From NCBI GenBank assembly GCA_034509925.1, contig CM067528.1, positions 5,352,501 to 5,416,500 of the forward strand: a stretch of DNA of 64,000 nucleotides, written 5' to 3'. Shown here piece by piece: positions 8,901 to 63,841 of this stretch (its first letter is position 1; every line of letters starts with the position of its first letter). Source of the DNA: Hirudinaria manillensis. Lineage: Eukaryota; Annelida; Clitellata; Hirudinida; Hirudinidae. The notes beneath the pieces are model-generated. The model was not told the DNA's origin and ran no database searches. It saw nothing but the letters and a program-made list of their open reading frames with translations. The position numbers and the translations under genes are program-made.

Positions 8901-11717
8901 TCTCTCCTTCTTAGAACCTTGGCAACGAGGAGGAAGAATATGACGAGGATGAGACATCCAAGGAAGACGGTGGTCGAGATGATGACGTGATAGAGAGGCA
9001 CCCATTCCTGGTTAGAGGCAGACGAGTCTTTGAAGTAGGGAGACTCGAATCCGTCCAATTCTCGACTGGCAGTTACGTAAGCAATCGACTTGTTAACGTG
9101 GATGTTGAGCACCGCTGGAGAAGCACGCCTGGAAGGAAGGCCGCTGTCCGTGACGAGAATCGTCAGTGGGAAGATTTTTCCGTCGAAATCCAAGAGGCTG
9201 CTGACGACTTGAATCTCTCCGGATAATGGATCGATTTTAAAGTAAACTCTCGTCTCGTTCGTTCGATCTTCCAAGATCTTAAAGTTCAGTTGAGCGTTTC
9301 TATCGCTGTCAGCGTCCCTGGCTATGATCTTGCCTACGACGTGGCCTGACGGTATCCTGTTCGAGATGAAAATATAATCGTCAGAAAGACTCGGAAAGAT
9401 TATCTCTGGATTGTTGTCGTTTTCGTCGATGACTTCAATGGAAACCGAAGCCTCGTCGCTCAGAGAAGGCAGTTGCTTGTCCGCCACGATGGCCGTCAAT
9501 CGAAACGAGGGGTTAACTTCCCGGTCGATGGACGCGGCGGTGCTAATCATCCCCGTGTCTCGGTCGATCGAGAAGAGTTTCGATCGTTGCTGGTTCGAGT
9601 TTAGCTTGAGGGTAGGGGAGGGACCCAGTGCCCCCGAGCCGTGAACGAGAGAGAAAACGAATTCGTTAAAGCCGGGACCGTCTTTATCGCTCCCAATCAC
9701 TTGGCCGACTTGGGTTCCAGGCGGCTGGTTCTCAATGACCGTGAAGCGGTACAAGGACTGAGAAAACTGCGGCCTCTCGTCGTTCACATCTCCGACGGTT
9801 ACGAGAACCACGGCCGAACCACTCCTTCGCGGTACACCACGGTCGACGGCATAGACGAGGAAGTTGTACGAGTCCTGGCTTTCTCTGTCCAGCGAAGTTT
9901 GAGCGCTTATCACTCCCTTCTGATTGATGCGAAAATATGGAGACATGGAGTCGTGCAGGAAATATTCCAGATGAGAATTAACGCCAGCATCGTCATCGGT
10001 GGCCGTAACCTGGTCATGAAGATTGAATCGCTTTCTTATACTTTTGGAAAATTCGAATCCATCAAAAATACGTGACTGCTTCGCAAGGTGTTCAAATGAA
10101 ATATGACCGAGGAGAGCTTTCAAAAGTAAACTTAAATGCATATAAATATGTAACATTCGAATGTGAGGGTGAATTTCAAACCTGAAGGAGCGAAATACCG
10201 ATCAAGTTATTCTCGTTGATCAAAGCTCTGTAGGTTTTCTGGGAGAAGGAAGGCGAGTTGTCGTTGACATCTGTGACCAGGACTTGGAGGCTTTTCTCGC
10301 TGATCCTCGACACGACAGCTCCGTCCTGACATCTGAGGACGACGTCGTAAACTTCCACCTTCTCCCTGTCCAGTTGTAAGGCAACTTCCAGCTGATATTC
10401 TGTCGGATATTTACGGACGAGGGAAAACGTCCTATCGATGACGGTGCAATTGACTTGACCGTTGATTCCAGAGTCGATATCCACCACGGACACCTGAGCC
10501 ACGAAAGCTCCGACGGCAGCGTCCTCCGGGATTTCGACCCGGGAAGGACCGAATGAATCGTTCCTCGTCTGCGTGCTCAGCGTATGGAAAGTGATTTGAG
10601 GTGCGTTGTCGTTGATGTCTTCGACCTTCACGACCACCGTCACCTCCGATGAGAGCGGATCGGGGCTTGCGTCGTATGCCACGACGACCAGCTGGAAATA
10701 ATGATTCTTTTCCCTGTCGACGAGGCCTTTGATGAAGATTTCTCCGGTGTCGTTTCTTATGCCGAAAAGGTTTCCGTGCGTATTGCTCGTCCGCGTATTG
10801 AACCTATAGGCGATCTGACCGTTGAGACCTGCATCCGGATCCATGGCCTGTAGTCTGATGAGTTGACTTCCGATTGCTTTGTTCTCGGGCACCGTCACCT
10901 CGTAGCGGGAGCTGTTGAAGCGCGGCTGGTTGTCATTGGAGTCCGTGACGACCACGTCCACGAATAGACTTCCGCTTTTTGGCTCAGGACCGCTGTCTAT
11001 AGCCACGATTAGGAGCCGATAGCCGGAAACCGTTTCCCGGTCGAGTTTTACGTTTAGGAGCAGTTTGAGCTCGAGCGAAGAATCCAATTTCGGTAGAACT
11101 CCGAGGGCAAATTCTTTCGGAGCGTTGATGAGTTCGTACTTTTGGATGCCGTACGAAGGGCTGTCGTGATCGACTGCAGTTGGAAGCAGATAGGAGCTGT
11201 TGACCGGAGCTGCTTCGTTGATGTCCATGACGATGAGGGAGTCTCTGAAGACTGGAGAATTGTCGTTGATGTCGAGTAGCTCGACGACCAGTTTGATTAT
11301 CTGGAAGTGCGTGAACGGTTGCACGATGACGACGTCGGCATTCAATTGGCAGTTTTCCTTTTGCCTGCACAGAGACGGATGATCTCTGTCAATTTCGACG
11401 CTCGTTTCGACGATGCCGGTACCGCTTCCTAGACGGAACCAGGTCGAAGATTGCTCGGAGAGGAACCTGAACTTGAGTTGCTTTGCTTCGGACTGACTGA
11501 GGTGGAGACCGATCTCTTTGACGAGATCGCAAACGAACGTACCGCGCGGTCGCTCTTCGAATATTTGATATCTGAATTGTAAGTTGGAAGGCATCGACGA
11601 TACTTCGAAACCGAAAAAGAAAAAACCCATGAGAGTCTCCAGCGTCTCTAGTATCAGTTTCGTTTTATCACCACTGCTTATCCATGATTTCGATCCATGA
11701 AGATTAAAAATTTTCAT
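5159..11717 (-). CDS. Delta-1-like protocadherin, seven cadherin repeats, three exons
   Basis: The spliced coding sequence joins 11717-10182, 10009-8723 and 5962-5159, all phase 0, giving about 1,208 residues from the first ATG. It encodes a type I membrane cell-adhesion protein: seven extracellular cadherin repeats (EC1 about 48-157, EC2 158-267, EC3 268-375, EC4 376-491, EC5 492-594, EC6 595-715, EC7 716-825), one membrane span (849-877) and a tail of about 331 residues. Calcium-binding linker motifs are visible (DINDN, DSNDN, DVNDN, DENDN, DxDxG, LDRE). EC1 has the C-x5-C cysteine pair (C117, C123) typical of protocadherins. Seven repeats are the delta-1 number (PCDH1/7/9/11 type); delta-2 and clustered members have six. 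Known family role: calcium-dependent, mostly homophilic adhesion at cell contacts, often neuronal. Orthology to one vertebrate gene cannot be assigned. A paralogue lies divergently at 62585. The exact start is uncertain. Confidence 0.9.
6312..6422 (+). repeat. Degenerate TGGA/GGAT array in intron 2
   Basis: GGAT units are interrupted by GACAGAGG and GAATGGAT variants. The array lies within the second intron of protocadherin gene 1. Confidence 0.85.
6851..7040 (+). repeat. 19-bp minisatellite, ten units, with TAATTA cores (intron 2)
   Basis: The unit GTACTAATTACATTACGAT is repeated ten times with no length change. Seven units keep the homeodomain core TAATTA, and most also keep CATTA. It lies inside intron 2 of protocadherin gene 1, about 1.1 kb from exon 3. 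Confidence 0.9.
8683..8689 (-). promoter_or_regulatory. Candidate intronic stop and poly(A) signal for a short-tailed isoform
   Basis: If intron 2 is not spliced, translation continues 11 residues and stops at TAA (8689-8687). AATAAA (8688-8683) overlaps that stop. Delta protocadherins are known to make short-tailed isoforms. Here the signal is seen directly, its use is inference, and no clear U/GU-rich downstream element is visible. Confidence 0.4.
8723..10009 (-). CDS. Protocadherin gene 1, exon 2 (EC5-EC7, transmembrane, tail start)
   Basis: The exon encodes 429 residues. EC5 ends at DVNDERPQF and EC6 at [11 protein letters not shown]7 runs to about 9070, has DADSD and a TDSG segment, and lacks a canonical final linker, as expected for a membrane-proximal repeat. 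The membrane span (about 8912-9001) has a hydrophobic core rich in V, I, L and F, followed by a basic stop-transfer run [12 protein letters not shown]. The tail begins [13 protein letters not shown] and continues to ISQSE, where a strong donor (GAA|GTGAGT, 8722-8717) ends the exon in phase 0. Without splicing the frame runs 11 more residues to TAA at 8687-8689. Confidence 0.9.
10010..10181 (-). other. Intron 1 of protocadherin gene 1 (172 bp)
   Basis: The GT donor is at 10181-10180 and the AG acceptor at 10011-10010. The join [14 protein letters not shown] restores an unbroken EC5 strand of canonical length, which fixes both ends. CAGGTT is present at both junctions. The acceptor has a weak pyrimidine tract. 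Another AG about 70 bp upstream would also stay in frame but would add 22-24 residues foreign to the cadherin fold. Confidence 0.85.
10182..11717 (-). CDS. Protocadherin gene 1, exon 1 (N-terminus, EC1-EC4, start of EC5)
   Basis: The frame is open from an in-frame TGA at 11751-11753; the first ATG is at 11717 and a second at 11630 (MGFFFFGF). EC1 starts at [10 protein letters not shown] and carries C-x5-C. Linkers end in [27 protein letters not shown] and DVNDNSPSF, marking EC1 to EC4, and the exon ends within EC5 at ...LIGISLLQ. The donor is CAG|GTTTGA; reading past it hits TGA at once. The N-terminal signal peptide is poor from either ATG, so an unseen upstream signal exon is possible. In the first four repeats the paralogue at 62585 has no intron before EC4, where it has one and this gene does not. 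Confidence 0.9.
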
Positions 11718-12030
11718 AATTAACACCTCCGCATAGAAGCATGGATTTGGTCATCAGACTTTCAACCGCTCCTCCCAAATGCATCCAACTGGGAGAAATA
11801 ATTTTAATTATTCAAAACATTTCCCGGATAAAATCAACGCATTGAATAAATTAGAATAAATTAGCAATTATCATAATTTATTTACAATTTGTAGAAAATG
11901 CGGAGGCGTTCAAATGCTTCTAGATAATCCAATTAAGAAGCAGACACTGAATTGATTCCAAATCTACATCTGCTTCAAGAAAATAATTTTCTCTCATCAC
12001 CAACTTCTTTCTGCTCGCAAGCGGAGGACG

Positions 12031-37665: not shown

Positions 37666-37794
37666 AATAAATGCAAAACATTTAAAATTTAACTTTGAAA
37701 TTGATGTGTCATTCGAAAGAAATTGAAATAAATTTCTGTTTTTGCTGCTTTGGAAAGAACTTAAAAACTCAATTCAAATTCTTATCTTATTTTC
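37666..37794 (+). repeat. 129-bp direct repeat, copy B
   Basis: This is the second copy of the repeat at 36417-36545, ending about 40 bp before the large CCAT array. The segment between the copies contains a GGAT/GGAC-type array and TTTA-type runs. Confidence 0.8.
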
Positions 37795-37836
37795 TGGGGC
37801 TTTCTTCATCCATCCATTCGTCCATACGTCCTTTCG

Positions 37837-38700
37837 TCCATCCATCCATCCATCCATCCATCCATCCATCCATCCATCCATCCATCCATCCATCCATCCA
37901 TCCATCCATCCATCCATCCATCCATCCATCCATCCATCCATCCATCCATCCATCCATCCATCCATCCATCCATCCATCCATCCATCCATCCATCCATCCA
38001 TCCATCCATCCATCCATCCATCCATCCATCCATCCATCCATCCATCCATCATCCATCCATCCATCCATCCATCCATCCATCCATCCATCCATCCATCCAT
38101 CCATCCATCCATCCATCCATCCATCCATCCATCCATCCATCCATCCATCCATCCATCCATCCATCCATCCATCCATCCATCCATCCATCCATCCATCCAT
38201 CCATCCATCCATCCATCCATCCATCCATCCATCCATCCATCCATCCATCCATCCATCCATCCATCCATCCATCCATCCATCCATCCATCCATCCATCCAT
38301 CCATCCATCCATCCATCCATCCATCCATCCATCCATCCATCCATCCATCCATCCATCCATCCATCCATCCATCCATCCATCCATCCATCCATCCATCCAT
38401 CCATCCATCCATCCATCCATCCATCCATCCATCCATCCATCCATCCATCCATCCATCCATCCATCCATCCATCCATCCATCCATCCATCCATCCATCCAT
38501 CCATCCATCCATCCATCCATCCATCCATCCATCCATCCATCCATCCATCCATCCATCCATCCATCCATCCATCCATCCATCCATCCATCCATCCATCCAT
38601 CCATCCATCCATCCATCCATCCATCCATCCATCCATCCATCCATCCATCCATCCATCCATCCATCCATCCATCCATCCATCCATCCATCCATCCATCCAT
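37837..38700 (+). repeat. 864-bp CCAT tetranucleotide microsatellite
   Basis: This is about 216 units of CCAT, virtually perfect, with one irregular unit near 38050 where a single C is missing and the phase shifts. Every frame on both strands is open or nearly so, giving artefactual Ile-His-Pro-Ser and Met-Asp-Gly-Trp translations. It is not a gene. Confidence 0.97.
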
Positions 38701-60300: not shown

Positions 60301-61499
60301 ACTTCAAAGCAGCCACTTTGAGATTGTTTCACTTTTAATCTGTAAACGATTTCATAATATCTTGAAAATCAATTTTTCGTCTGAAGTTCATTTTAGTTGG
60401 CCTGTCATGCAGAATTAGAAAAGAGATTTTTGAATAAAAGCCACACCCCTTTGCGGTAAAGTGTTGGATGGCATGAAATATGCTTTTCCGCCTTGAAGAA
60501 GATGCTGCTCTCGGCATTCCAGGCATCATTTTTCATCTCCGCTATGTTAACTTGACGACAATGATGAGGTGGATACAACGCCGGGCTTTGTCTCGAGTAG
60601 ACCTCCTCAACAGGAGATGCCCAACCACTTTCAGCAATTCGAAATTCTTGGAAATCTTTGCAAGAGAATGACTTCTTTTTTTTTTTTGTTCTCCATTCAA
60701 ATTACACGTTTCCTCTCAAAGACAAATACGAATTGCTTGTCCAATTGTCCTGCCAGCAACAACATCAACAACAATGGCTGCGTTTCCCGGGATTTTGTAA
60801 GAAATTTATTTCTTATGCCTCCATTCAAGTCGTCTTTTGCTTCGATAAACTTTTAACTCGGATAAAACATAAATTTGTTGCAAATGTTTCGGAGGAGATT
60901 GTATGCTTTTAAAGTTTCGGTACTGAATACTTTTATAGAATTGCCACATGAATTAGTCATGTTAGTGTCGTGCAGTCAAAGACGGTCAAAAAAGATGAAG
61001 AATGCCAGCTTTACAAAGGCCTCGATAAGACTATAAAGGACATTCCAAAATAATACATGGACGTGTGCCATCCTTACAAAGGAGGTGCGAAGTGCATCCA
61101 AATTCCAACTTTTCCATCCGGAAAAGACTGAAGTGATTGCATTATGATGAAAAGTCGGGGATGAAAAGTCCAGTTCTAAATCCCGCCGGATATTAAGTGG
61201 TAGATTCTTTTGCTCGTCTGAGATTAGAAGCCGACTTCAATTATAAAGAACAACCACACTGCCGTGTTAACGAAACGCTTGTCTGGCTTTTTGTCAACAT
61301 TTTTGAATATATTTTAAATGCTTTTACGCTTGTAAGTTATAAATAGTGAAAATCTGTTTTTGAATAAATTTCGCGAAAAATAAAATTTATCTCCGACTTG
61401 ATAACTCGGGGGAATTCTAAAGTACAAATTAAGCTCAAACCCAGCCTTAAATAACTTCAAATTCTTCATGGAAAGGATGGGGCATACAGACATCCATGA

Positions 61500-61579
61500 C
61501 AACCTGGGGTTTCCATAGCAACCTGGGGTTTCCAAAGCAACCTAGGGTTTCCATAGCAACCTGGGGTTTCCATAACAAC
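61500..61579 (+). promoter_or_regulatory. Four tandem RFX X-box-like motifs in a 19-bp repeat
   Basis: The unit CAACCTGGGGTTTCCATAG is repeated four times with few changes. Each unit junction makes an X-box: GTTTCCATAGCAAC at 61509 and 61547, GTTTCCAAAGCAAC at 61528 and GTTTCCATAACAAC at 61566. All fit the RFX consensus (RYYNYY, 2-bp spacer, RRNRAC). The array lies about 1.0 kb upstream of the ATG of protocadherin gene 2. RFX factors control ciliary and sensory-neuron genes in animals. The repeat and motif match are seen; binding and target gene are inference. Confidence 0.5.
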
Positions 61580-62584
61580 TTGCGTTAACGAAATAACATT
61601 CTGGGAATTAACAGTCTGAAATCTAATTAAAATCCTCTTAAGAAATAAATCTCGAGGAACGTATTCTCTTTTCATATCCGCCGAGGCGTTGTTTTCTTCT
61701 GGAGTTGTTTAATGAAGAAATGAGATTAATTAAAATGATGAATGAGAATCTAGGATCCTGTTGACGAAAGAAATCATTGGCGTCTTTATGGTCTCCCGTG
61801 TTTATTTGAAACAAGTGTCCAATATAAATGCAAATGAGCGTTTCAGGCCCTGCTTTAATACGAAATTTACAAGTCGTGATGCTCATCGCTCGTATTTATG
61901 CCGCTTCAGAGCCCGGAACTTGCAGCGTGAAATACGCAGAACATTCTTAATGTTCTTGCGATGGGGTCTTCGGTAAAGTCAATTTTCGAGTTGGCTTTCT
62001 TTTGATTTCTTTCAATTCCTCATCCTTCATTCCGTCGCCTGATTTTTACTCTTGTCTCCAGAAAATCTTAGGAAGACGAAAAGTTCTCGAATAATCTTTT
62101 AAGTGAGACAAGCTCAGGACGCACAATTTATCGTTCAAACCGCTTATCCAGGAATTTATGTCGCCATGAAGGCTAGTAATCAAGAAATGGTTCCATTTTG
62201 ATGCCGTTTAGAGAAACTTTCAGAGAAAGTAAAGACTTGTTTATTCTCTTTCGTGAGTTTTTATCGTCGCCTCTGTGCCACTAAGCAACATTTCCTGGAT
62301 GGAAGTTGAGAATTCGGAGACTTTTAGGCGATTTCCATGATGCTTCCATATCGTGCCTAGTGAAGTTATTATGTCCATTCCACCACTCGAGAGGAAAAGT
62401 AAAAAAAATATTAAAATTTTTATGTGCCACGCACGTTTACGTCCGTGAAAATTTTAATTGATTTAACGATTGGAAAATATTCGTTATTCAGACTCCTCTG
62501 ATAAATGAAGCTCGCACCAACAGGAGAATGAACAGAAATCCTAGACTGAATAACATGGAGTAGAAACACGATAAAGTGATTTCC
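61580..62584 (+). promoter_or_regulatory. Upstream region of protocadherin gene 2
   Basis: About 1 kb lies between the X-box array and the ATG. No clear TATA box is seen. An in-frame TAG at 62561-62563 limits the coding start. The promoter and any 5' UTR exon probably lie here or further upstream. Confidence 0.4.
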
Positions 62585-63841
62585 ATGCATCTCATATGGC
62601 TCTCGTTCATTTCACTTGTTTCGACTTCTTCGTCGACGAAAACATCAAATCCTCTCAATGCTGCCAATAAATTTCGGTTCCAAATTACCGAAGAGTTGCC
62701 CATCGGAAGTTTGGTGGCAGACATGAAAGAAGAATCGAGATTCGCCAGCAGGTATACTAGCCAGGAATTGCTCCAGTTAGAGTTCAGAATCCTCACTTCT
62801 CCCCCGCTACCGTTTGCTGTGGAATTGACGACTGGAAGGATAATCACCGAGGGAAGCATCGACAGGGACAGTCTGATGCAATGCAAAGACAGGGAACTCT
62901 GTCAGGTACAACTCGACATCACAGTGAAACCGATAAAGTTCTTTGAAATCCTCAAGGTCGTCATCGAAATCGCCGACATCAACGACAACGCTCCATATTT
63001 CAAAGAATCCTCGATAAACCTCTCCATACGCGAGTCGATAGCAGTCGGCAGCACGTTGCAGTTACCGGCAGCGTCTGATCTCGACAGTCCCCGGTTTGCA
63101 GTGAAATCCTATTTGTTGGTCGACTACGAAATATCACATTTTGGGCTCAGCGTTTTCGAAAGGAAAGACTCCGTTCTCGATCCGAGACTCGTCGTTCTGT
63201 CTGCTTTGGACCGCGAGACGAAGGACAAGTACGAAATGAAGTTGATAGCCTCTGATGGCGGTTCACCTCCTCTGACTGCAACTATAGACATTTTGGTTCA
63301 CATCGCAGATGCCAACGATAACAGTCCGAGGTTTGAATTCCCCGCCTACGAGTTGAACGTCACCGAGGATGTCAAGCCGGGAACGGTCGTTCTCACCGTT
63401 TTGGCAACTGATAAAGACAGCGGTCTGAATGGACAGGTGGTTTATCGCTTTTCAGACCAAACCTTGGAATTTTCCGGTGCTTCTTTTGAATTGGAGAGAC
63501 GCACAGGAATCATAAAAGTCATTAAGAATTTGGACAGAGAAACACAAGCCTCGCACCAACTGACCGTTTTTGCTGAAGATCTCGGACCCGATTCTGTACC
63601 TGTAGATACCACCGTTCTCGTCAGAGTCATTGACATCAACGATAACAAACCCATCATCACTATCAGCACCTTCACTTCGAGAAAAGCGGATTTCGCCGAG
63701 GTCTGGGAGAATCAACCCCCGAATACGTTTGTTGCCCACATTACAGTCGAAGATCCCGATGATGGACTCAATGCCGAAGTCAAATGTCATTGTACGAATC
63801 AACACTTTGTCATGCATCAGAGATATTCCACCCAATATCAG
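62585..63841 (+). CDS. Second protocadherin, first coding exon (signal peptide, EC1 to part of EC4); truncated by window end
   Basis: The exon encodes 419 residues to a donor CAG|GTTGGA at 63842. The first ATG after an in-frame TAG (62561-62563) gives MHLIWLSFISLVSTSSS, a credible signal peptide. EC1 (about 30-138) begins FRFQITEELPIG, has the protocadherin C-x5-C pair (C100, C106) and ends DINDNAPYF. EC2 (139-250) ends DANDNSPRF, EC3 (251-357) ends DINDNKPII, and EC4 is cut by the intron after RYSTQYQ. Aligned by eye it is clearly paralogous to the gene at 5159-11717, with the same repeat order and the same spacing in EC1. The remaining repeats, membrane span and tail lie beyond the window. 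It is likely also a delta-type protocadherin; the repeat number cannot be seen. Confidence 0.9.

What the first reader, a model, noticed from the sequence alone, without database searches (positions are those of the whole stretch)
61500..61579. Four tandem RFX X-boxes upstream of a protocadherin
A 19-bp repeat has copied an X-box four times (GTTTCCATAGCAAC type), about 1 kb before the gene 2 ATG. Genomic X-boxes are usually single or paired; a homotypic array made by a minisatellite is unusual and could make the gene strongly RFX-responsive, for example in ciliated sensory neurons.
Basis: partly seen in the sequence, partly recalled or inferred. Interest (0 to 1): 0.7.

Follow-up and report, generated by a model that had tools for sequence, protein, structure and literature searches.

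The report
Minisatellite copies of an RFX-like site
Upstream of a leech cadherin gene, a short tandem repeat has copied a probable RFX-binding site four times; the sites look genuine, but such arrays arise in this genome about as often as for a control sequence, so the array is largely ordinary.

Summary
Window 61500-61579 is a 19-bp tandem repeat (4.2 copies, 91% match) with four X-box-like 14-mers at 61509, 61528, 61547 and 61566. A degenerate fifth unit lies in register at 61490-61503. The array ends 1,005 bp before the ATG (62585) of a protocadherin-like gene. By assembly statistics the genome is the leech Hirudinaria manillensis.

The X-box reading is supported. The 14-mer class is about 59-fold over-represented (592 vs 10 reversed-pattern matches). 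RFX DNA-binding domains are encoded. One of two B9-gene upstream stretches read has an X-box 27 bp before a presumed ATG.

That the array is unusual is not supported. The genome holds 71 same-strand X-box-core pairs at 52 places, one with ten sites. X-box cores cluster no more often than a reversed control 10-mer: 52/3323 vs 7/529, Fisher p = 0.85. No evidence found here ties the array to ciliated neurons or shows selection. Best reading: a neutral minisatellite expansion around a real RFX-type site, with unknown, probably modest effect. Orthologues could not be examined.

The parts
61500..61579 (+). 19-bp minisatellite, 4.2 copies, consensus CAACCTGGGGTTTCCATAG
   Evidence: TRF
61490..61503 (+). 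degenerate fifth unit (ACATCCATGACAAC) in 19-bp register; reverse strand carries an RFX monomer-like GTTGTCATGG
61509..61522 (+). X-box-like copy 1, GTTTCCATAGCAAC
61528..61541 (+). X-box-like copy 2, GTTTCCAAAGCAAC
61547..61560 (+). X-box-like copy 3, GTTTCCATAGCAAC
61566..61579 (+). X-box-like copy 4, GTTTCCATAACAAC (weakest right half-site)
   Evidence: absent from the list
62585..63841 (+). first coding part of gene 2: hydrophobic N-terminus (signal-peptide-like by eye), Cadherin_2 and Cadherin domains; gene continues beyond the window
   Evidence: continuation in L014; the 3' end given here is approximate (exon boundary not mapped)

Best explanation
A single X-box-like RFX site about 1 kb upstream of a protocadherin-like gene was copied by local tandem duplication (a 19-bp minisatellite) into four full units plus one degenerate unit. 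The sites are probably recognisable by the leech's RFX proteins (inferred). The array arose at about the genome's ordinary rate of tandem duplication, and nothing found here shows that selection built or keeps it. If it acts, it most likely acts as a promoter-proximal or short-range enhancer cluster that recruits RFX and modestly changes expression of gene 2 (inferred, not tested).
For: Array structure. Motif over-representation: 592 vs 10 for GTTNCCATRGYAAC, 178 vs 9 for GTTTCCATAGCAACC at up to one mismatch. The GTTT form is common: 44 of the 100 rows listed of 592 (counted by eye). Of 27 perfect 15-mers outside the window, 20 have flanks that look unrelated by eye and 7 share one flank. RFX DNA-binding domains: four matches above cut-off at three genomic places; the C7 one aligns to human RFX1 1dp7 at E 1.4e-25. 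One B9 gene (C8) has GTCACCTTGGAGAC at L054:691-704, 27 bp before a presumed ATG. Baseline rate: 52/3323 clusters vs 7/529 in the control, Fisher p 0.85; three of the 52 are copies of one duplicated sequence, and with 50 the p is 1.0. Arrays of three or more sites: 8/3323 vs 2/529, p 0.64 (two of the ten multi-match clusters dropped as palindromic double counts; counting a ninth with 9-bp period at C1:2615536, p 0.65). The DNA search with the array and its flanks finds only itself, so it is not a dispersed repeat as far as that search can tell.
Against: All four full copies still match the degenerate consensus, which could reflect constraint, but there are only two motif changes among them, so this has no statistical weight. 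Half of the X-box pair places with flanks in hand (8 of 16 distinct) are not TRF tandem repeats, and only about 1.1 same-strand pairs are expected by chance genome-wide, so some X-box clusters may be selected homotypic pairs. Only one control 10-mer was used; it resembles simple-repeat sequence and may overstate the baseline. Copies 1-3 deviate from the strict consensus in the left half-site, and copy 4 deviates more. The other B9 upstream stretch read (L053, 1 kb) had no X-box.
Confidence: 0.62

Rival explanations
1. A functional homotypic RFX enhancer: the array was kept by selection because multiple RFX sites give stronger or cell-type-specific expression of the protocadherin gene, for example in sensory neurons.
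For: Genuine-looking X-boxes, RFX domains present, and a distance of about 1 kb that would lie inside the -2300 to +1400 permissive TSS window reported for human X-boxes (PMC5838959, passages), though the leech TSS is unknown. For the exact 15-mer at up to one mismatch, the window array is the only cluster among the 100 places listed of 178. A Hirudo protocadherin is expressed in P and N neurons (PMC7992859, passages); whether it is the orthologue was not tested.
Against: Cluster frequency of X-box cores equals the control baseline; the 1.2-kb stretch upstream of the neighbouring paralogue (L055) shows only one poor match; no conservation data; P and N neurons are not known to me as ciliated (recalled).
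Confidence: 0.2
2. Inert minisatellite: the motif resemblance has no regulatory role at this place and RFX does not occupy it in vivo.
For: The window is rich in tandem repeats (235 TRF rows at score 40, overlapping rows included); baseline rate of clusters; 5-bp gaps between adjacent 14-bp sites may crowd RFX dimers (inference).
Against: The motif class is about 59-fold over-represented, so the founding site is unlikely to be a random match.
Confidence: 0.15
3. The repeat is a target of another factor or a chromatin-level repressor rather than an RFX activator site, as with MORC3-restricted tandem repeats in mammals.
For: Analogy only: PMC13373173 (abstract).
Against: No leech MORC or accessibility data were examined.
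Confidence: 0.03

Closest known systems
X-box (RFX binding site) of animals
   Same: Imperfect inverted repeat; RGYAAC right half in copies 1-3, 2-bp centre; RFX domains encoded in the genome
   Different: Left half reads GTTTCC instead of GTNRCC; four full copies at 19-bp spacing; about 1 kb from the ATG, whereas most known C. elegans X-boxes lie within 250 bp (PMC1794439, passages)
Tandem-repeat homotypic motif clusters restricted by MORC3 (IFNB1 element)
   Same: A tandem repeat multiplies one transcription-factor motif
   Different: That element has 45 PU.1 sites and shown enhancer activity (PMC13373173, abstract); here four sites and no functional data
Other X-box arrays in the same genome, e.g. 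C10:9524658-9524928 (29-bp period, 10 sites), C7:433711-433783 (21 bp, 4 sites), C6:9346304-9346367 (18 bp, 4 sites)
   Same: X-box core repeated by a short-period tandem array
   Different: Different unit length and spacer sequence, so independent origin is inferred

Membership tests
RFX X-box | Two inverted half-sites GTNRCC N0-3 RGYAAC (PMC10530576, passage) | tested here: inconclusive
   Copies 1-3 one mismatch each, copy 4 not listed at up to one mismatch (only the 2-bp centre was tested); all four match the looser RYYNYYWWRRNRAC
RFX X-box | Motif enriched over background in the genome | tested here: met
   592 vs 10; 3323 vs 529 for the 10-bp core
RFX X-box | Cognate RFX factor present | tested here: met
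   Four PF02257 matches over cut-off at three places; 1dp7 match of one of them
RFX X-box | Bound by RFX protein | not testable with these tools
   Needs EMSA, DAP-seq or CUT&RUN
Minisatellite | Head-to-tail copies of a unit of roughly 10-60 bp (definition recalled) | tested here: met
   Period 19, 4.2 copies
Selected homotypic enhancer | Cluster frequency above the tandem-duplication baseline | tested here: not met
   52/3323 vs 7/529, p 0.85, one control word
Selected homotypic enhancer | Conservation of the array in related species | not testable with these tools
   No relatives of this genome are held
Protocadherin | Cadherin_2-type first domain, further cadherin repeats, transmembrane segment | tested here: met
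   PF08266 and PF00028; three more Cadherin stretches downstream; a hydrophobic segment in L014:2218-2955 seen by eye, no TM predictor run; exon joins inferred

The most novel reading that the evidence does not exclude
In this leech genome, minisatellite expansion repeatedly turns single RFX sites into homotypic arrays (52 pair or array places, at least eight with three or more sites), supplying lineage-specific RFX enhancers, of which the protocadherin array is one.
Probability: 0.1. Interest if true: 0.5.

Novelty: new member of a known kind. Interest (0 to 1): 0.22.

Why it matters
It shows how ordinary tandem duplication can multiply a transcription-factor site and gives a set of natural X-box arrays with different spacings in one genome. 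It also shows that a striking motif array needs a genome-wide control before it is called functional.

Tried and rejected
Dispersed-repeat origin: the array with flanks matched only itself (that search skips very common words). A repeat-borne X-box was seen elsewhere (7 of 27 perfect 15-mers share a flank), but the window copy does not share it. Rfam at gathering scores: no match in the window. Bacterial promoter and terminator scan of 61400-62600: nothing, and not suited to an animal. Another gene between gene 1 and gene 2: a Pfam scan of 73 of the 75 selected ORFs between about 15 and 63 kb gave no family (ORFs of 50 aa or more with G+C above 0.42, two repeat-coded ones left out), so gene 2 is the nearest gene recognised. 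Motif-versus-spacer divergence inside the array: too few changes to test. Literature: 'homotypic cluster' with RFX and X-box gave 0 papers; X-box, RFX and annelid gave 1, a tapeworm paper; RFX, X-box and protocadherin gave 4, seen as a listing only. The weight matrix was written from recall and is rough; its counts (65 hits vs 11 reversed in 290,741 bases, partly sites chosen for the motif) are used for no p-value.

Full report
What is there. The window lies on C3 of a 148.4-Mb, 23-contig assembly. C1 (14,755,599 bp), C13 (8,303,845 bp) and C6 (11,463,318 bp) fit the 14.76-8.30 Mb range and the 11.46-Mb N50 printed for Hirudinaria manillensis in PMC10671345 (passages; contig sizes), so I take the organism to be that leech. 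The identification is by assembly statistics only; 23 contigs would fit that paper's 13 chromosomes, 9 small scaffolds and a mitochondrial genome, but the total is about 0.16 Mb below its 148.59 Mb. At 61500-61579 a 19-bp unit is repeated 4.2 times. Each full unit holds an X-box-like 14-mer followed by a 5-bp spacer, and a degenerate fifth unit precedes them in register. The ATG of gene 2 is at 62585.

The gene. The ORF from 62585 carries Cadherin_2 and Cadherin domains (that Cadherin_2 is typical of the first domain of protocadherins is recalled). It continues past the window in L014, where one ORF has three more Cadherin stretches and a further ORF has a hydrophobic segment by eye. Exon joins are inferred. 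Related genes lie at 10176-11750 (minus strand) in the window and at C3:5429013-5430182 (minus); 137 matches to the gene 2 protein were found genome-wide, a lower bound (100 of 309 candidates scored). A Pfam scan of 73 of 75 selected ORFs between gene 1 and gene 2 found no other family.

Are the sites X-boxes? All four copies match the loose nematode consensus. Copies 1-3 are one mismatch from the strict GTNRCC-N2-RGYAAC; copy 4 is further off. The strict consensus and the RFX monomer sequence GTTRCY come from PMC10530576 (passages). The genome supports the motif: GTTNCCATRGYAAC occurs 592 times against 10 for the reversed pattern (palindromic sites count on both strands), and GTTTCCATAGCAACC at up to one mismatch 178 against 9. 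Of 27 perfect 15-mers outside the window, 20 have unrelated flanks by eye; 7 share one flank. RFX DNA-binding domains are present at three places. The C7 domain matches human RFX1 1dp7 at E 1.4e-25; frames for the C12 and C10 domains were read, not searched further. As a positive control I read upstream stretches of two of the three B9 genes: one has an X-box 27 bp before a presumed ATG, the other has none in 1 kb. This is thin support.

Is the array unusual? A same-strand search for two CCATRGYAAC cores 3-32 bp apart gives 71 matches at 52 distinct places, one with ten sites and two with four. Three of the 52 (C1:7065917, 7134154, 7217475) carry the same sequence and are probably copies of one duplicated locus, which leaves 50. 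About 1.1 pairs are expected if sites were placed at random. The reversed control core gives 15 matches, at 7 places by my count, against an expected 0.03. Per single site the rates are the same: 52/3323 and 7/529, Fisher p 0.85; for arrays of three or more, 8/3323 and 2/529, p 0.64 (singles). With 50 places p is 1.0. So tandem duplication in this repeat-rich genome suffices to explain the clusters. Limits: one control word only, and it resembles simple-repeat sequence. The pair pattern sees only copies 1 and 3 of the window array, so counts are lower bounds for both words.

Against the neutral reading. Among the 20 loci cut, which reduce to 16 distinct places, TRF finds a tandem repeat spanning the pair in 8 and none in 8 (a TTA run between the two sites of L046 is not counted as one). 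The non-tandem pairs hint that some X-box pairs are placed by selection; the same could not be tested for the control. The window array is of the tandem class. For the exact 15-mer at up to one mismatch, the window array is the only cluster within 200 bp among the 100 places listed of 178, so this particular variant is rarely arrayed.

Neighbourhood of other X-boxes. From 164 selected ORFs I scanned 143: 15 families matched, among them PAX, Ion_trans, protein-tyrosine phosphatase and a phosphodiesterase N-terminus; none is a family I know as ciliary. Many ciliary proteins have generic domains, so this does not exclude cilium genes.

Verdict. The effect on gene 2 is unknown. I rate the finding an ordinary member of a known kind.

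Noticed in passing
G000 C1:10.09-10.26 Mb and C12:2.94-3.09 Mb (L004, L005, L006, L028, L029, L030): A duplicated or dispersed segment family shares the flank of a perfect X-box 15-mer (7 sites); L029 also holds reverse-transcriptase and HECT-domain ORFs.
   Followed up: partly
G000 C10:9524658-9524928: A 29-bp-period array with ten X-box cores, larger than the window array.
   Followed up: no
G000 C3:5437881-5437905: A further X-box-core pair about 7.7 kb beyond the paralogous cadherin match at C3:5429013-5430182 (minus strand), on its upstream side.
   Followed up: no
G000 C2:1979828-1979841: A full X-box about 0.95 kb before a cadherin-like match at C2:1980795; significance not tested.
   Followed up: no
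window 37774-38700: A long 4-base-type tandem repeat that leaves several frames open on both strands; by its look not a gene.
   Followed up: no
window 15572, 24531, 29477: Other X-box-like sites in the long gap between genes 1 and 2 (the last two also).
   Followed up: no
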